Source of the DNA: Candidatus Sumerlaeota bacterium
Lineage (GTDB): Bacteria; CG03; SLGR01
Reading direction: 5' to 3'
DNA: 7,002 nt
NCBI GenBank assembly: GCA_007136585.1
Contig: SLGR01000079.1
Location: forward strand, 1-7,002
This document shows positions 107 through 7,002 of the stretch, one piece after another. Made by a program: the position numbers and the translations under genes. The notes beneath the pieces were generated by a model. That model worked only from the letters and a program-made list of their open reading frames with translations. It did no database searches and had not been told where the DNA came from. How positions within the stretch are numbered: position 1 is the stretch's first letter; each line of letters opens with the position of its first letter.

Positions 107-150
107 AAAAAAAGAAAAGCCCCTTTTACCTGCACTGATAAAAGGGGCTT
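107..150 (-). terminator. Strong intrinsic terminator after the small repeat-protein gene
   Basis: A perfect 12-bp inverted repeat has arms at 150-139 and 128-117 (AAGCCCCTTTTA and its complement) around a 10-base loop. On the minus strand it is followed at once by TTTTCTTTTTTT (118-107). The stem plus T-run is a textbook Rho-independent terminator for transcription coming from the 76-residue gene, whose stop codon is 23 bases before the stem. There is no T-run on the other side, so it acts only in the minus direction. Confidence 0.9.
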
Positions 151-156
151 GATGAA

Positions 157-174
157 AACCGGAAACGGCCGGTT
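157..174 (-). repeat. Short inverted repeat at the stop codon, ahead of the terminator
   Basis: AACCGG (174-169 on the minus strand) and CCGGTT (162-157) form a perfect 6-bp stem around a 6-base loop and overlap the stop codon of the 76-residue gene. Only TTTTC follows on the minus strand, so alone it would be a weak terminator. It may assist the main terminator 7 bases further on, or be coincidental. Confidence 0.35.
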
Positions 175-403
175 ATTTTTTTCTTCCGCGCGCCATTTTG
201 GCCCTGGCCACATCACCGTCTTTATCTACGAAATAAAGATAGCCGGACTCTTTTGATACTCCGACGTTTGCGACTTTTTTGGGTTTGCCTTTTCCTTTGC
301 CGCCGCGCGCCATTTTTACTTCCGCGATGTCACCGTCTTTGTCCACGTAGTAAAGATAACCGGATTTCTTATCAACGCCGGCCTTTGCCACTTTCTTTGC
401 CAT
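173..403 (-). CDS. Small basic two-repeat protein, function unknown (76 aa)
   Basis: The protein is an internal duplication: residues 3-34 and 42-73 share a pattern of about 32 residues (KVA..GV.K.SGYLY.VDKDGD.A..KMARG) at a 39-residue period. A Gly/Lys linker (GGKGKGKPK) joins them and the tail is basic (RGRKK). It has no signal peptide, membrane segment or cysteine, so it is probably cytoplasmic. The repeat looks like a beta-hairpin (GYLYxVDKDGD), and the high Lys/Arg content would suit nucleic-acid binding, but this is inference. I do not recognise a named family with a known role. The start is firm: AAGGAGG (415-409) lies 5 bases before the ATG. It has its own consensus-like promoter and terminator. 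Codon use differs from the upstream operon (ATC, CGC, GCG and AAA rather than ATA, AGG and CCC). With the strong signals, this suggests a well-expressed independent gene. Confidence 0.85.
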   Translation of the reverse strand: MAKKVAKAGVDKKSGYLYYVDKDGDIAEVKMARGGKGKGKPKKVANVGVSKESGYLYFVDKDGDVARAKMARGRKK

Positions 404-408
404 GTTTT

Positions 409-415
409 CCTCCTT
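409..415 (-). promoter_or_regulatory. Strong ribosome binding site of the small repeat-protein gene
   Basis: AAGGAGG on the minus strand, 5 bases before the ATG at 403-401, is a near-complete match to the anti-Shine-Dalgarno sequence. It fixes the start of the 76-residue gene and is the best ribosome binding site in the window. Confidence 0.85.
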
Positions 416-439: not shown

Positions 440-460
440 ATTTGCTATTTTGTAGCAAAT
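440..460. promoter_or_regulatory. Perfect dyad (possible operator) over the -10 region
   Basis: ATTTGCTA (440-447), five bases, then TAGCAAAT (453-460) is a perfect 8-bp inverted repeat. It covers the -10 box and the expected transcription start of the promoter for the 76-residue gene, the usual position of a repressor operator. Read as RNA from the PAP2 side it would give an AT-rich hairpin followed by TTTTGAATTTT, so it could instead be a weak terminator for the upstream operon. The stem has only two G-C pairs, which makes the operator reading somewhat more attractive. Confidence 0.5.
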
Positions 461-477
461 ATCATCGAAGATGTCAA
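449..477 (-). promoter_or_regulatory. Sigma70-type promoter of the small repeat-protein gene
   Basis: On the minus strand a perfect -35 box TTGACA (477-472) is followed by a 17-base spacer and the -10 box TACAAA (454-449, four of six matches). TG at the right place gives an extended -10 (TGCTACAAA). Transcription would start near base 442, leaving a leader of about 40 bases before the ATG at 403. The -35 box contains the TGA stop codon of the PAP2 gene (476-474), so the promoter starts exactly where the preceding gene ends. Confidence 0.7.
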
Positions 478-1463
478 CGACGAGTCTCCGACGGAGAGTT
501 TCTACCGCTTACGCGGCGCTCCCACCCCCGCTGAAGCCGGGGGGTAAGCCAGAGGGCAAAAAGCCCAACGGCTATCCCGGCGAAAACATCGCTTATGTAA
601 TGATACCTGTTGTAAACTACCGAAACTGAGAGGATACTTACCGTGGGAAGGTACCAGTAAAAGACCTTCCGCCGGTAAAGCCACATCAGCATCAGGCATA
701 CGAAAGCCACCGCCACGTGCGATGACGGCATACACCCCCCGTGAAGGCTGAACCTCCGCATTATCCTGTCCTGAAACCCGGTAAAAAAATAACCCTTAAG
801 AGCCATACTCTCTTTATCCGCCACATCATCAGCCACCCCGGGACCGTAAAACTCCCGGATATTAACCGCATAATCGTTCTCGTACCTGTCGTAGAGCTCG
901 TAACGCGGCCCTCGCACCGGATAGAGTATAAACCCCAGGTAGGATATATAGAAGGCAAGGCAGACAGTTGAAAGAAACCTGATATAATTTCTCCTTTTCC
1001 CCCTGAAGTAAAGAAAAGCCGCCGAAGCGGGGATTATAAGGTAGTAGGTGAAATAGAAAAACTTCATCACCTCTGTCAGAACCGGGGAGACAAAACCGTC
1101 CGCCCACAGGGTAAGGCACTCCACCCCGAATATTGATTTCTCAAAGGCCATAACCTGGTGATCCATCCACCCCGCCACTATCACCTGGGTAAAAGGGTCT
1201 ATGGTCTTGTAGTTGTAAGTAAAGAGAAGCACCGGGTACCACCAGCTGATGAACCTGAGTACGGGGTTGCCGGAGGCGCGGGCGGAGGGGATAAAGAATA
1301 TTATGCTCAGTACGATCGCAAGGTTAGCGGCCGTATAAAGATACCAGTTCTCCACCCCTCTTCCCAGGAGTACCACAAGAAGAATAAACGCCGTCATATA
1401 CCCTATGAACAAAATATCTATAAGCGTGTAATCGGAAGCTTTCAGACCTTTTTTCGGAAGCAT
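474..1463 (-). CDS. PAP2-family membrane phosphatase/phosphotransferase, AUR1-like
   Basis: This is a 329-residue polytopic membrane protein of the type 2 phosphatidic acid phosphatase superfamily. Hydrophobic segments lie at about residues 14-34, 42-60, 73-83, 134-153, 163-182, 248-263, 270-284 and 292-306. The catalytic motifs are visible: YPVRGPR (181-187) as the first phosphate-binding motif, HGGCMPSSH (241-249) with the PSxH histidine His249, and NRYHYISD (285-292) with the likely nucleophile His288 and its partner Asp292. The GPR form of the first motif and the HGG..PSSH form of the second are typical of the branch related to inositol-phosphorylceramide synthase (AUR1) rather than of short undecaprenyl-pyrophosphate phosphatases. 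The substrate is therefore probably a membrane phospholipid or isoprenoid phosphate, not determinable here. GAAGGG (1480-1475) lies 11 bases before the ATG. It follows mnmG by 42 bases and is probably co-transcribed with it. Confidence 0.88.
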   Translation of the reverse strand: MLPKKGLKASDYTLIDILFIGYMTAFILLVVLLGRGVENWYLYTAANLAIVLSIIFFIPSARASGNPVLRFISWWYPVLLFTYNYKTIDPFTQVIVAGWMDHQVMAFEKSIFGVECLTLWADGFVSPVLTEVMKFFYFTYYLIIPASAAFLYFRGKRRNYIRFLSTVCLAFYISYLGFILYPVRGPRYELYDRYENDYAVNIREFYGPGVADDVADKESMALKGYFFTGFQDRIMRRFSLHGGCMPSSHVAVAFVCLMLMWLYRRKVFYWYLPTVSILSVSVVYNRYHYISDVFAGIAVGLFALWLTPRLQRGWERRVSGRNSPSETRR

Positions 1464-1505: not shown

Positions 1506-3335
1506 CTACCGCCCGCCTTTTCTCCCCTTAAGATACACCATTATACTCATAAGAGCAGCCGGGGTAACCCCCGGAATAGTTGAGGCCTCTTTCAGAGTCC
1601 CCGGACGGGCTCCCGTAAGTTTCTCCACAACCTCTCCTGAGAGCCCGCCTATCCCGGCGTAATCCGTTCCGGGAGGGATACTTACGGATTTAAGTTTTCC
1701 CAGCCTCTCAATATCCCTGATCTGCCGCCTTATGTACCCCTCGTATTTTATATCGGCCTCAAGGCGTTCGGAACTCCCCGCATCAATTCCTCCAAGAGAC
1801 GGCAGCTTTTCTTTAAGCTCATCTAAACTCCGCCCGGACCTCACCAGGTCCGCAGCCGGAACGCGACCCCGCCCGTCATCAATCTTCTCATTTTCTAAAA
1901 TCCCCCTGAATTTTTCAAGTTTCTCCCTCTCAGACTCCGCCCTCCGGATAACCTCTTCTGGGACACATCCCAGTTCGGCCCCTTTGGGAGTAAGCCTGAA
2001 GTGAGCGTTATCCTCCCTGAGCATAAGCCTGTACTCGGCCCGCGAGGTAAACATCCTGTAGGGCTCGCGGGTCCCGGCGTTTATAAGGTCGTCTATCATT
2101 ACACCTATATAAGCCTCGTGGCGTTCAAGGATAAAAGGGGGTTCGCCTCTTACGCCCAGTGCGGCGTTTATACCGGCCATAACCCCCTGTCCTGCCGCCT
2201 CCTCGTACCCTGTCGTTCCGTTTATCTGCCCCGCCAGGTAGAGCCCCGCCACAGGGCGGGTCTCCAGCGTAGGTTTAAGCTGACGGGGATCGCATAGGTC
2301 GTACTCTATCCCGTACCCCGGACGGAGCACCCTGACCCGGGCAAGACCTTTTATGGTTCTTATGAAACGCTCCTGAACATCTCCGGGCAGACTCGTAGAT
2401 ATGCCGTTGGGGTAGCAGACAGCCGTATCAAGGGTCTCGGGCTCAAGGAAGACCTGGTGCCGGGAGGCTTGGGGAAACTTAACCAGTTTATCCTCTATTG
2501 AAGGACAGTACCTTACGCCTGTGCCTTCTATCATTCCCGTGTAAAGGGGGGAACGGTCAAGGGCTCCCCTTATTATATCGTGGGTCTCCGGGTTGGTATG
2601 GGTGATGTAACAGGGGAGCTGCGGGTTGGAAAGAGTATCTGTAAGTATAGAAAACCCCCGTGGCTTCTCATCCGGATCCTGTTTTATTAAACCGGAAAAA
2701 TCTATGCTCCCGTACTCCAGACGGGCGCAGGTGCCTGTCTTGAACCTCATCATATCAAAACCAAGCTCCCGTAGGGACCTGGATATTCCGCCGGATGCTC
2801 CCTCGCCCTCCCTTCCCCCCTCCCGGCTCTCCAGCCCCGTAAATATTCTGCCCCCCGGGAAAGTACCCGGGGTGAGAATAACAGCCGACGAGTGGATCAA
2901 CGTTCCGTCTGAAAGCTCAACCCCCTCCACGCTGCCGCCGGAGCTCAGAACCCTCTCTGCAGTACCCTCAAGAAAATCAAGGTTCGGAGCCGAAAAGACC
3001 TCTTTTTTTATGAAGTTCCTGAAAAGTATCCTGTCAACCTGCGCCCTGCCGGCACGGACCGCAGGTCCCCGGGACATATTGAGTTTCCTGAAATGTATCC
3101 CCGCAAAATCCGCCGCGCGACCCAGCACCCCTCCGAGCGCGTCCACTTCCTTTACTATCTGCCCCTTCCCCAGACCGCCTATAGCGGGGTTACAGGAAAG
3201 TTCTCCGGGGTTCTCTCTGCTCATACTGACAAGAAGCGCCGCGCGCCCCATACGGGAGGCGGCCAGGGCCGCTTCCACACCGGCGTGCCCTGCCCCCACG
3301 ACTATGATTTCGTAATCCTTTCTATTCCCGCTCAT
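1506..3335 (-). CDS. mnmG: tRNA uridine-5-carboxymethylaminomethyl modification enzyme MnmG (GidA)
   Basis: MnmG works with the GTPase MnmE to install the cmnm5 group on wobble uridine 34 of certain tRNAs in the cytoplasm, using FAD and a methylenetetrahydrofolate-derived carbon. The 609-residue protein is full length, slightly shorter than the usual 620-650. It shows the N-terminal dinucleotide fold GAGHAG (14-19), the signature [12 protein letters not shown] (47-58), RYCPSIEDK (275-283) with the conserved Cys277, [20 protein letters not shown] (359-378), [15 protein letters not shown] (430-444), and the C-terminal helical domain ending [15 protein letters not shown] that contacts MnmE and tRNA. 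One oddity is KTGTCAR (199-205), where most family members have Pro in place of Cys203. The start overlaps the end of the radical SAM gene by 14 bases; AGGG lies about 10 bases before the ATG. The gidB/parAB genes often found near it are absent. Confidence 0.97.
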
Positions 3336-4266
3336 ATCTCTTACCCTGGTAACTTCCCCTGGATTCCATAACCCGTTCTATCGTTTTAAGAACGCGGTTT
3401 TTATCCCGCATCCAGGCCGGGGCTATCAGAAACTTCTCAGGACAGTCCGCCGTCAGCCTCTGTATAACTGTATCAGGGTGCAGGCGCTCAAGAACCTCCG
3501 AGACCGCGCCGGCGTAACCTTCCAGGTCCAGAAGATTTAACCCGCCTTTAAGGTATGATGAAGCCAAAGCGGTTCCTTTCATTATATGAAGCGGATGGAG
3601 CTTGACCCCCTCAAGGGCAAGCAAGGCGGTCTCCCGGGCAGAATCTATGAAATCATCCATCCCTTCTCCCGGCAGGCCGATTATGAGGTGAGCGCAAATT
3701 TTTATCCCGGGGTGCTTTCTCGTCATCTCCACCGCCCTGAGAAAATCTCCGAAACTGTGCCCACGGTTAATCCTTTTCAGGGTCTCGTCGTTTGAGCTCT
3801 GCATCCCGTACTCGACCCAGACCTCGTATCTTCCGCAGTAACTACCTATAAGACTGAGAATTTCCCCGTTTACGCAGTCGGGCCTTGTCCCTATGGCAAT
3901 CCCGGCGACTTCCGGGAAACCCAGGACCGAATCATATACACGTTTAAGCTTCTCCAGGGGAGCGTACGTATTGGTGCGTCTCTGGAAATAAACAATAAAC
4001 TTTTCAGCGGGGTTTTTACCCTTCCCGGCGTCGGAGAGGCCTGTCTCAATCTGCCCCTTAAGCGGAAGATCCCTCCGCCCCCTGTAAAACCCTTCCGGAA
4101 GGCAGTATACGCACCCTCCGGCTCCGGAGGAGTCGCGACCGGGGCAGCCCATACCGGGGTCAACGGTTATTTTCCTGACCCGGCACCCGAACCTTTCCCT
4201 GAGATATTCTGAAAACCTGTAGTACCACCCGGGGCTCCTGACCGGGCGCGGAGGCGCGCCGGGCAT
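3322..4266 (-). CDS. TIGR01212-family (YhcC-like) radical SAM protein
   Basis: The 314-residue cytoplasmic enzyme matches the YhcC/TIGR01212 family along its length. The [4Fe-4S] cluster cysteines are Cys41, Cys52 and Cys55 in [16 protein letters not shown] (40-55), one residue tighter than the usual spacing. Family blocks follow: [11 protein letters not shown] (93-103), [11 protein letters not shown] (122-132), [20 protein letters not shown] (150-169), [11 protein letters not shown] (192-202), [11 protein letters not shown] (222-232) and the tail [13 protein letters not shown] with QGKRYE. The radical SAM class cleaves S-adenosylmethionine to a radical and needs a low-potential electron donor; the product of this family is not established to my knowledge. 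The ATG lies 2 bases after the rseC stop. GAAGGAA is about 12 bases upstream, so coupling to rseC translation is likely. The family usually begins near Gly13, so the first dozen Pro/Arg-rich residues are an extension, but no other good start is visible. Confidence 0.93.
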
Positions 4267-4268
4267 AG

Positions 4269-4673
4269 TTAAATGGTTTCCTTCAGTTCTATCCTTACGG
4301 GGCGGCGGTGCTTTTTAAGAGCGGTTTTTCTTATAAGTATGTACCCGAAAACAAGGAAAAGAGAGGCCCCTGCAAATCCGCCCCCGTCTCCTCCGATAAG
4401 ATACCCCCCGTAAAACCCCGCCATCGCGAGCATAGCGGGAAAAAAGTACATATAAAAGGCCGCCCTGAGAAGGATACCGCACTCCACGGAGAGAGTTACC
4501 CTGTCTCCTTCGGAAAGCTCCAGTCCTGTTTTTATACTCAAAGGGGATCTCCCGGAAGTGGAACATCCGCCGCAACCGGAACACTTCTCCGGAAGTTCAG
4601 GTTTTACCTCAGCAAAACCGTCCGAGAAGGAAATAACCCTGCCGCTAACGGTTACCCTGGATTTTTTTCTCAT
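4269..4673 (-). CDS. rseC: RseC/SoxR-reducing system family membrane protein
   Basis: The 134-residue protein has the RseC/MucC layout: a short cytoplasmic N-terminal beta domain with a cysteine cluster CSGCGGC (Cys31, Cys34, Cys37), then two membrane segments at about 66-94 and 99-116, and a basic tail. A further cysteine, Cys65, lies just before the first membrane segment. In E. coli RseC takes part, with the Rnf-like Rsx complex, in re-reducing the [2Fe-2S] regulator SoxR, and also affects sigma-E control. Here the gene sits directly after rnfB and overlaps it by 29 bases, which supports a role as an Rnf accessory protein. It is shorter than the usual 150-160 residues. No Shine-Dalgarno sequence is visible before the ATG, so translation probably depends on ribosomes finishing rnfB. 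A SoxR target cannot be assumed. Confidence 0.85.
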   Translation of the reverse strand: MRKKSRVTVSGRVISFSDGFAEVKPELPEKCSGCGGCSTSGRSPLSIKTGLELSEGDRVTLSVECGILLRAAFYMYFFPAMLAMAGFYGGYLIGGDGGGFAGASLFLVFGYILIRKTALKKHRRPVRIELKETI

Positions 4674-5454
4674 ATATACACGAAGTCGGGCATTTTAAGG
4701 AACTTATATCAGCCCCGTTCTCCCGGGGCAGGGCCCGGGCAAGGTTATCCTTAACCTCAAAGACCCCCTCGGGGCCCTTCTTCACGCATAGCATACACGC
4801 AATACATCCGTCCGGGCAGACCTTCCTGGTATTCTTCCCTGACTGGGTATTTGAACAGGCGACATATATAAGCTTTGAATCCTTTGCGACAGGGAGAACC
4901 TTTATTATATCCCTGGGGCAGGCCCCGGCGCAGAGCCCGCACCCGGTGCACGTCTCATCGGCTATCTCGGGAACACCCGCGGGGTTTAGCCTCACCCCTC
5001 CCAGAGGGCAGGCCTTAACGCAGTCCCCGTACCCCAGGCACCCGTACCGGCAGGCCATTCCCCCTCCCCCGGTAATATCCGCAGAGAGGCAGCTTTTGGA
5101 GCCTCTGTACTCCGCGTTCATTTTCCTATCTTTCACCCCGCATAAGACCACGGCTTTAACCGGAGGCCCTTCCGGTGGCCCTTCCACGCCGGTCAAAGAG
5201 GCAAGCTCCGCCGAAAGCTCAGGGCCTCCCGCGCGGCAGAGACTCACATCGGCCGATCCGGCGGCAACCCCGAGAGCGTACTCGTGACAGGAAGCGTACC
5301 CGCAGGCGCCGCAGTTCAGCCCGGGAAGCTTCTCCATTATCTCTTCCACCCCGGGATCTTCCTCAACCTTAAGGCGGCTATAGGATATTGTAAGAACGGC
5401 CCCCGCGAGGAGCCCAGTGCTGCCTAAGACTATAAGGCTTGTAAGGATGCTCAT
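4645..5454 (-). CDS. rnfB: Rnf complex subunit B, iron-sulfur electron-transfer protein
   Basis: RnfB carries electrons between ferredoxin and the membrane part of the Rnf complex. Residues 5-25 form the N-terminal membrane anchor. The Fe-S domain NCGACGYASC (47-56) supplies Cys48, Cys51, Cys56 and probably Cys73. Next is a ferredoxin pair: CRYGCLGYGDCVKACP (135-150) and CTGCGLCAGACP (169-180). A third, C-terminal module, as in long RnfB of the CDGEAB type, is recognisable from Cys200, Cys213 and GCIACMLC (216-223) but is degenerate: the expected Cys at 227 is Gly, and the next motif keeps only CPTSC (255-259). This suggests loss of one cluster. The 269-residue length fits a long RnfB. It starts 2 bases after the rnfA stop (TGAAAATG) with no clear ribosome binding site, implying coupling, and its end overlaps rseC by 29 bases. 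Confidence 0.95.
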   Translation of the reverse strand: MSILTSLIVLGSTGLLAGAVLTISYSRLKVEEDPGVEEIMEKLPGLNCGACGYASCHEYALGVAAGSADVSLCRAGGPELSAELASLTGVEGPPEGPPVKAVVLCGVKDRKMNAEYRGSKSCLSADITGGGGMACRYGCLGYGDCVKACPLGGVRLNPAGVPEIADETCTGCGLCAGACPRDIIKVLPVAKDSKLIYVACSNTQSGKNTRKVCPDGCIACMLCVKKGPEGVFEVKDNLARALPRENGADISSLKCPTSCIYEKKIQGNR

Positions 5455-5456
5455 TT

Positions 5457-6047
5457 TCAGGGTGATATCATCCCGGAAAAACCCATAAACGCAAGCGCAA
5501 GAAACCCCGCTGTAACAAGGACTACCGGGGCCCCCTTAAACGCGCGGGGAACAGGAACCCACTCCAGCTCCTCCCTTATCCCCGCCATTATAACTATAAC
5601 CAGCGTAAAACCCGCCCCGGCCCCGAACCCGAAGACCATGGATTCAAGGTAATTATACTCTCTTATGACCATAAAAAGCGCCATTCCGAGTATAGCGCAG
5701 TTGGTTGTTATTAGAGGAAGGTAAATCCCGAGCGCCCTGTAGAGAGGCTGAAAAAACTTTCTTATGAACATCTCCACGAACTGGACAAGCGACGCTATAA
5801 CCAGGATAAAGATAACGTATTCCAGGAAGGGAAGGTTGAGCCCCGTCTCGGGAGAGATAAGATAGTAGTAAAGCGGCCAGGTAATAAGGGCGGTCATGGT
5901 CATTACAAACGTAGTTGCCATACCCATCCCGACGGAGGATTCAAGCCTTGACGAGACCCCCAGGAAAGGGCATATCCCGAGAAAGTAATATAGGACAAAA
6001 TTATTTACCAGTACAGCCGATATGAATATAGTGAAAAGCGGGCTCAT
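5457..6047 (-). CDS. rnfA: Rnf complex membrane subunit A
   Basis: RnfA (NqrE homologue) is one of the two inverted-topology membrane subunits that form the core of the ion-translocating ferredoxin:NAD oxidoreductase. The 196-residue protein has about six membrane helices and the family signatures NNFVLYYFLGICPFLGVS (15-32) with Cys26 and TTNCAILG (114-121) with Cys117. In Nqr and Rnf structures, these two cysteines together with the matching pair in RnfE hold a membrane-embedded [2Fe-2S] cluster. The length is normal for the family. The start codon overlaps the rnfE stop as ATGA, and GGAGGGG lies just upstream inside rnfE, so the two partner subunits are translationally coupled and probably made in equal amounts. 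Nothing unusual is seen. Confidence 0.96.
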   Translation of the reverse strand: MSPLFTIFISAVLVNNFVLYYFLGICPFLGVSSRLESSVGMGMATTFVMTMTALITWPLYYYLISPETGLNLPFLEYVIFILVIASLVQFVEMFIRKFFQPLYRALGIYLPLITTNCAILGMALFMVIREYNYLESMVFGFGAGAGFTLVIVIMAGIREELEWVPVPRAFKGAPVVLVTAGFLALAFMGFSGMISP

Positions 6048-6637
6048 CTCCCCTCCGATTTAAGGTTCACGCTGTTATACAGGGCCGCAAGTATACCCAG
6101 GGTTATGAACGCCCCGGCAGGAAGAAGCATTATTATCAGGGGCTCGAAACCTCCCGGCATTACCTGCGCTCCCATAAGGGTCCCCGCGCCTAAAATCTCC
6201 CGTACCCCTCCCAGCAGGGTAAGGAGCCAGGTAAACCCCACTCCCATCCCGAGGGTATCCAGCACCGAAAGGTGAAGAGGGTTCCGGGAAGTAAAGGCCT
6301 CCTGGCGCCCTAGAATAAGACAGTTTACCACTATAAGAGGGACATACGGGCCCAGTTCCCGGCTTATATCCGGGAACCCGGCCTTTAATACCATATCAAC
6401 TATGGTTACAAAAGTCGCGATTATTATCGTAAATACAGGTATCCTGACCTGGGGGGGGATAAGCTTCCTGAAAAGAGAGATGACTATCCCCGAACTTACA
6501 ACCACGAAACTCGTGGCAAGTCCCATTGAGACCCCGTTTATAGCCGAGGTGGTCACAGCCAGCGTGGGGCACATCCCCAGAAGCTGCATTAATACGGGGT
6601 TTTCCTTCCAGAGACCTTTAACGAATACTTTCAGCAT
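6044..6637 (-). CDS. rnfE: Rnf complex membrane subunit E
   Basis: RnfE (NqrD homologue) pairs with RnfA in the membrane core of Rnf. From the ATG at 6637-6635 the protein has 197 residues, about six membrane helices, and the motifs NPVLMQLLGMCPTLAVT (with Cys23) and VPLIVVNCLILGRQEAF (with Cys106). These two cysteines are the RnfE half of the shared [2Fe-2S] site. A TTG two codons further upstream (6643) would give 199 residues, but GAGGG (6651-6647) is 9 bases from the ATG and only 3 from the TTG, so the ATG is chosen. The gene overlaps the end of rnfG by 20 bases and the start of rnfA by 4. The length is at the short end of the family range. Confidence 0.95.
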   Translation of the reverse strand: MLKVFVKGLWKENPVLMQLLGMCPTLAVTTSAINGVSMGLATSFVVVSSGIVISLFRKLIPPQVRIPVFTIIIATFVTIVDMVLKAGFPDISRELGPYVPLIVVNCLILGRQEAFTSRNPLHLSVLDTLGMGVGFTWLLTLLGGVREILGAGTLMGAQVMPGGFEPLIIMLLPAGAFITLGILAALYNSVNLKSEGR

Positions 6638-7002
6638 ATTCAACAGCCCTCATAACTATCCTTTCAACGGCCTCGGAAGATAAAGTGGCCCCGGTCAGAG
6701 CATCCACCTCCCCGGGAAGCTCCCCCAGCCCCAGGTTCTGATACTGAGAGAGGTACTCATCCGCGCGGATCCGGTCTCCAAGCCCGGGGGTCTCCACGGT
6801 CTCAAGGACTTTCACCCCCGTGACTTTCTCCACGCGGCTGTCAAACCCGGCCATAAGAACTATCTCCCCCTGAAACCCCATACCCCGGGCAAGGACCGCA
6901 TAGCCCATAAGCTGCCCGTCGGATATTCCCCTGAATACAAGCGGGTCCCTTCCCGCCTCCTCAAACTCCTCTGCGCCCGGAAGAACCTCATAGAGGGAGC
7001 TC
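6618..7002 (-). CDS. rnfG: Rnf complex subunit G, C-terminal part (cut by the right edge)
   Basis: The frame is open from base 7001 to the TAA at 6620-6618 without a start, so only the last 127 residues of RnfG are present; the membrane anchor and N-terminal part lie outside. The fragment reads as the periplasmic FMN-binding domain: SSLYEVLPGAEEF near the cut, GYAVLARGMGFQGEIVLMAG, a VETPGLGDRI block, and the flavinylation motif DALTGATLSSEAV. Its second Thr (codon 6686-6684) is the expected site of covalent FMN attachment through a phosphoester bond. RnfG passes electrons within the complex on the outer side of the cytoplasmic membrane. The C-terminus is intact. An internal ATG at 6908-6906 is not the start, because conserved family sequence continues upstream of it. 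Confidence 0.93.
   Translation of the reverse strand, partial: SSLYEVLPGAEEFEEAGRDPLVFRGISDGQLMGYAVLARGMGFQGEIVLMAGFDSRVEKVTGVKVLETVETPGLGDRIRADEYLSQYQNLGLGELPGEVDALTGATLSSEAVERIVMRAVEYAESIR
6647..6651 (-). promoter_or_regulatory. Ribosome binding site that decides the rnfE start
   Basis: GAGGG on the minus strand, within the end of rnfG, is 9 bases from the ATG at 6637 but only 3 from the alternative TTG at 6643. The spacing favours the ATG. Confidence 0.6.

What the first reader, a model, noticed from the sequence alone, without database searches (positions are those of the whole stretch)
173..403. Two-repeat basic small protein of unknown function in its own transcription unit
Residues 3-34 and 42-73 are near copies at a 39-residue period, each with SGYLY.VDKDGD and KMARG, joined by a Gly/Lys linker. 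Few 76-residue proteins are internal duplications this clean, and this one has an almost consensus promoter, the best ribosome binding site in the window and a strong terminator. Its codon choice (ATC, CGC, AAA) differs from the adjoining operon. Together these suggest an abundant small protein; nucleic-acid binding is a guess from the charge.
Basis: partly seen in the sequence, partly recalled or inferred. Interest (0 to 1): 0.6.

Follow-up and report, generated by a model that had tools for sequence, protein, structure and literature searches.

The report
Unnamed twin-module basic protein family
This small, positively charged protein, built from two copies of one tiny folded unit, belongs to a family in no protein catalogue searched here, yet nearly all sampled bacteria of one phylum and most sampled archaea of another carry it; it probably coats DNA or RNA.

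Summary
On the minus strand (403 to 173) lies a 76-residue protein of two 32-residue near copies (24/32 identical), with conserved promoter, ribosome-binding site and terminator. It is not an oddity of this genome. It belongs to a family absent from Pfam and NCBIfam above cut-off, with no sequence or fold match in the PDB. Sampled genomes carrying it: 115/119 Elusimicrobia, 150/194 of the phylum holding Woesearchaeota, 51/117 Omnitrophota, 47/100 Marinimicrobia; usually one copy each. AlphaFold gives six strands (pLDDT 90), three per module. Single-module proteins of about 40 residues exist, as do fusions to HIT, nitroreductase and zinc-ribbon-like parts. About 30% of the members in the tree carry histone-H1-like lysine-rich tails, which changed state at least six times. 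Best reading: an abundant cytoplasmic nucleic-acid-binding protein of the nucleoid or RNP kind, each module contributing one basic, Tyr-bearing beta surface. Nucleic-acid binding is inferred, not shown. It coexists with archaeal histones and, in most relatives, HU, so it does not simply replace them. Rivals: lineage-specific ribosome-associated protein; adaptor domain.

The parts
173..403 (-). gene of the 76-aa twin-module protein
   Evidence: ORF; homologues throughout several phyla; 32 synonymous vs 8 replacement codon changes against L009
302..397 (-). module 1, residues 3-34: three predicted beta strands (3-6, 16-20, 26-30)
   Evidence: repeat alignment; AlphaFold; single-sequence fold of residues 1-39
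281..301 (-). Gly/Lys linker, residues 35-41
   Evidence: translation; lower-confidence block of the model at residues 31-40
185..280 (-). module 2, residues 42-73: three predicted strands (42-45, 55-59, 65-69)
409..415 (-). ribosome-binding site AAGGAGG, 5 nt before ATG
   Evidence: AGGAG conserved in all six relatives aligned
449..454 (-). -10-like TACAAA with extended TG
   Evidence: region alignable in relatives
472..477 (-). -35 TTGACA, overlapping the stop codon of the upstream PAP2-like gene
   Evidence: TTGACA kept in 5 of 6 relatives
117..150 (-). intrinsic terminator, 14-bp stem followed by T run
   Evidence: equivalents in L009, L012, L020

Best explanation
The protein is a member of an unnamed family built from a 32-residue three-stranded beta module (consensus EKVAKVGVKKESGYLYFVDKxGDVSRAKMARG). 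Shown: the module, its duplication, its use alone or in pairs, its distribution and its fusions. Inferred: it is an abundant cytoplasmic protein that binds nucleic acid (DNA or structured RNA) without strict sequence specificity. Each module would offer the same basic, tyrosine-bearing hairpin surface, so that two modules, or a dimer of single-module proteins, grip the polymer at two points. In some lineages an added lysine-rich tail would strengthen binding and bridging, as the tails of histone H1-like proteins do. It would work alongside HU or archaeal histone, not instead of them.
For: Net positive charge and pI 9.8-12 in every member measured. Invariant Gly, Leu, Tyr and Met plus near-invariant Lys and Arg at the same positions of both modules, so both keep the same contact residues. 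K/R-rich tails of 20-119 residues, of the KKAAKKK/PAKRK kind, in 22 of 74 tree rows, with at least 6 changes of state on the tree. Zinc-ribbon-like N-termini in four archaeal paralogues (weak Pfam matches, but two CxxC pairs visible). No hydrophobic leader, so cytoplasmic. Mostly single copy and near-universal in Elusimicrobia (115/119) and common in the Woesearchaeota phylum (150/194). Strong conserved transcription and translation signals. Absent from phage, plasmid and viral collections at the sensitivities used, so a chromosomal housekeeping role fits better than a mobile one.
Against: No binding data. No fold match to a known nucleic-acid-binding domain. The window's own protein has no long tail. 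Fusions to a HIT hydrolase and a nitroreductase are not typical of nucleoid proteins. Lysine-rich tails can also bind RNA, ribosomes or polyphosphate. Gene neighbours are not conserved between phyla. No inverse relation to archaeal histones (Fisher p 0.16) and no link of open-frame length to histone absence, as a pure chromatin substitute would predict.
Confidence: 0.5

Rival explanations
1. A lineage-specific ribosomal or ribosome-associated protein: small, basic, single copy and near-universal within some phyla, with a beta domain and basic tail contacting rRNA.
For: Size, charge, copy number and near-universality in Elusimicrobia; strong promoter and ribosome-binding site; lysine-rich tails are common on ribosomal proteins (general knowledge).
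Against: Patchy in Omnitrophota (51/117) and Marinimicrobia (47/100); shared across archaea and bacteria whose ribosomes differ; duplicated as HIT and nitroreductase fusions; not linked to ribosomal protein genes in the loci read.
Confidence: 0.2
2. An adaptor module that binds another protein or tethers enzymes to one, the basic charge being secondary.
For: Found fused to HIT hydrolase (L147, L151), nitroreductase (L149) and a coiled-coil-like protein (L150); the repeated small beta unit recalls WW or SH3 adaptors (sub-threshold WW match).
Against: The commonest architectures are stand-alone and tailed; every member measured is basic; tails added repeatedly are basic, not protein domains.
Confidence: 0.15
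3. A binder of polyphosphate or other acidic polymer granules, like the H1-like protein AlgP of Pseudomonas.
For: AlgP, an H1-like protein, spaces polyphosphate granules (PMC9239181, title and abstract start); charge and tails fit.
Against: Many members have no tail; present in reduced archaea whose polyphosphate metabolism was not tested here.
Confidence: 0.07
4. A cytoplasmic offshoot of the YgdI/YgdR (DUF903) small beta-barrel lipoproteins.
For: Sub-threshold matches to DUF903 (E 0.0095, 16.3 bits, cut-off 27) and YgdI_YgdR (E 0.025); YgdR-type structures recur at the top of a non-significant Foldseek list for one module.
Against: All scores are below cut-off; no signal peptide or lipobox; only the hairpin matches.
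Confidence: 0.04

Closest known systems
Histone H1-like proteins of bacteria (Hc1/Hc2, AlgP)
   Same: Relatives of this protein carry the same kind of long Lys/Ala/Pro-rich tail; likely general nucleic-acid or polyanion binding.
   Different: Here the tail hangs on a folded twin beta module, and the window protein lacks the tail.
YgdI/YgdR family, DUF903 (PF06004, NF033216)
   Same: Short sub-threshold match over the hairpin; recurring weak fold matches to one module.
   Different: Those are lipoproteins with a signal peptide; scores here are below cut-off; no duplication or basic tail.
HU (PF00216) and archaeal histones (PF00808)
   Same: Small, basic, near-universal proteins in their groups.
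   Different: Those folds are helical or mixed; this one is predicted all beta, no match to either model was listed, and it coexists with them in relatives.
Small beta-barrel chromatin proteins of archaea (Sso7d, Cren7)
   Same: Small, basic, all-beta, about 60-80 residues (from general knowledge).
   Different: No sequence or fold match was returned; here a tandem 39-residue repeat.

Membership tests
YgdI/YgdR, DUF903 | profile match above curated cut-off | tested here: not met
   16.3 bits against 27; 14.5 against 42
YgdI/YgdR, DUF903 | signal peptide with lipobox | tested here: not met
   N-terminus MAKKVAKAGVDKK, no hydrophobic stretch and no Cys in the protein
YgdI/YgdR, DUF903 | SH3-like barrel fold | tested here: inconclusive
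   YgdR-type chains recur in the list for one module, but best E 0.38; single-sequence model pLDDT 73.5
Histone H1-like bacterial proteins | long lysine-rich disordered tail | tested here: not met
   window protein ends MARGRKK; met in 22 of 74 tree rows
Archaeal histone (PF00808) or HU (PF00216) | profile match and helical or mixed fold | tested here: not met
   neither model among the Pfam matches; model all beta
WW domain | profile match above cut-off and conserved Trp | tested here: not met
   16.7 bits against 26.9 over 15 residues; no Trp in the protein
Ribosomal proteins | presence in ribosomes | not testable with these tools
   needs sedimentation or structure
Nucleic-acid-binding proteins in general | binding to DNA or RNA | not testable with these tools
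   inferred from charge, tails and fusions
Sso7d/Cren7-type chromatin proteins | shared fold | tested here: inconclusive
   not among Foldseek or VIA rows, which does not exclude it

The most novel reading that the evidence does not exclude
A previously undescribed class of chromatin or RNP protein, built from a 32-residue beta module used singly or in pairs, conserved as a core component in both a bacterial phylum (Elusimicrobia) and an archaeal phylum (Nanoarchaeota with Woesearchaeota), and repeatedly fitted with histone-H1-like tails.
Probability: 0.4. Interest if true: 0.8.

Novelty: new variant of a known kind. Interest (0 to 1): 0.58.

Why it matters
A protein carried by about 97% of sampled Elusimicrobia and about 77% of the sampled archaeal phylum, yet absent from Pfam, NCBIfam and the PDB, is a gap in what is known of the basic machinery of two large, mostly uncultured groups. 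If it binds DNA or RNA it adds a chromatin or RNP protein class shared by bacteria and archaea. The module is small enough (about 40 residues in single-module members) to be synthesised and tested directly.

Tried and rejected
Phages, plasmids and IMG/VR: no relative; a weak PHROG match (phrog_9154, E 5e-5) was not pursued. PDB by sequence: nothing below E 1.1. Fold search: no Foldseek match at E <= 0.001, best VIA Z 3.3; no sign of a known fold, though absence from these lists proves nothing. Ca2+ binding at the DKDGD turn was considered and dropped: the third position varies freely (Q, N, K, A, D) and the last Asp becomes Asn in many members. Histone substitute: no exclusion between this family and PF00808 in 194 archaeal genomes (118 both, 32 and 30 alone, 14 neither) and no relation of open-frame length to histone absence. 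Neighbour genes: differ between phyla; helicase (Hef-like, ERCC4) and OB-fold genes lie downstream in some Woesearchaeota, too few to weigh. Literature: no paper on the family found in ten searches; most subscription journals are not held.

Full report
What is there. The 76-residue ORF lies on the minus strand, 403 to 173. Its two 32-residue halves agree at 24 positions, far above shuffles of the same residues (score 133 against a maximum of 58). The gene sits 70 bp downstream of a PAP2-like gene that ends a tightly packed operon (Rnf subunits, RseC-like, radical SAM, MnmG; read from the translations). Its -35 box overlaps that gene's stop codon. A perfect TTGACA, a 17-nt spacer and an extended, imperfect -10 (TG-C-TACAAA) precede AAGGAGG and ATG; a 14-bp terminator follows. 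In six relatives TTGACA is kept in five, an AGGAG site in all, and a similar terminator in three of the four whose downstream DNA was printed. Codon choice differs from the neighbouring genes (4 in 10,000 simulations), mostly by avoiding GGG.

Family. No Pfam or NCBIfam model matches above cut-off and no PDB sequence does. A scan of named species genomes found 129 encoding relatives among the candidate stretches, the best 80 kept, at 56-89% identity: Elusimicrobia, Omnitrophota, Marinimicrobia and, among archaea, Woesearchaeota and Nanoarchaeota. A profile of 50 members (A1) was then run on whole genomes. It is present in 115 of 119 genomes of the phylum of a named Elusimicrobia genome, 150 of 194 in the phylum of a named Woesearchaeota genome, 51 of 117 in that of an Omnitrophica genome, 47 of 100 in that of a Marinimicrobia genome, and 40 of 386 genomes in a spread of mostly distant relatives of the window's own genome. 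Most genomes hold one copy. The genomes are largely drafts, so the frequencies are lower bounds. Phylum names come from the record titles of the loci used as centres.

Anatomy of the family. Nearly all named loci have two modules 39-42 residues apart with the same consensus. Single-module proteins of about 40-60 residues occur in bacteria (L096, L125, L126) and archaea (L160-L162, L166). N and C modules are on average 72% identical within a protein, against 66% (N-N) and 70% (C-C) between proteins: the two halves have not drifted into different jobs. In both modules Gly12, Leu14, Tyr15, Gly21 and Met28 (numbered from 0 along the 32-residue consensus) are invariant in 81 proteins; Lys19 and Arg30 are invariant in module 1 and nearly so in module 2.

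Structure. AlphaFold2 on A1 gives pLDDT 90, pTM 0.77 and six strands, three per module. One module alone, without an alignment, still gives three strands at pLDDT 73.5. Foldseek and VIA find no convincing relative in the PDB. The relative placement of the modules was not assessed, as no aligned-error map was returned.

Tails and fusions. 22 of 74 tree rows carry K/R-rich tails of 20-119 residues that resemble histone-H1-like tails. They occur in Endomicrobia, Omnitrophota, Woesearchaeota and one record labelled Proteobacteria, and need at least six changes on a tree of the core; that tree has only 75 columns and is weakly resolved. In the archaeal phylum the modules are also fused to HIT domains (E 1e-17 and 9e-18), a nitroreductase (2e-28), a coiled-coil-like protein, and N-terminal segments with two CxxC pairs that look like zinc ribbons, though Pfam support is weak.

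Mechanism. Shown: the module, duplication, distribution, basic charge, tails and fusions. Inferred: binding to DNA or RNA by a basic, tyrosine-bearing beta surface repeated in each module, with tails adding non-specific affinity; abundance; cytoplasmic location. The family coexists with archaeal histones without exclusion, and open-frame length does not depend on histone presence. HU was found in most relatives of the window genome, but not in the window genome itself, which is 88% complete. So it is not a simple substitute for either. The main rival is a ribosome-associated protein, which patchiness in two phyla and enzyme fusions make less likely.

Verdict. A real, conserved, single-gene unit and a member of a family that none of the catalogues searched names; an ordinary-looking small protein that turns out to be near-universal in large, mostly uncultured groups. 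Its function is a well-motivated inference, not a demonstration.

Noticed in passing
L147 (G471), L151 (G518), L149 (G509), L150 (G509), L153, L154, L156, L158: Archaeal paralogues in which the module is fused to HIT hydrolase, nitroreductase, a coiled-coil-like protein or a zinc-ribbon-like segment.
   Followed up: partly
G005:C88:5451-5618 (L100); G082:C110:8227-8451 (L099): Second copies interrupted by stop codons, apparently decaying duplicates.
   Followed up: no
L059: Record titled Proteobacteria carries a tailed member grouping with a Woesearchaeota row (95/88 support, long branch); the contig may be mis-binned or the gene transferred.
   Followed up: no
G000 (whole genome): No HU (PF00216) match in the window's genome although 14 of the 15 same-phylum relatives searched have one; the genome is only 88% complete.
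   Followed up: no
window 478-560: Stem-rich GC sequence at the 3' end of the PAP2-like ORF; it has no second copy in this genome, so it is not a dispersed repeat.
   Followed up: yes
window 1506-7001: Tightly packed minus-strand operon: Rnf subunits, RseC-like, radical SAM protein and MnmG, with overlapping or nearly touching genes; assignments from reading the translations.
   Followed up: no
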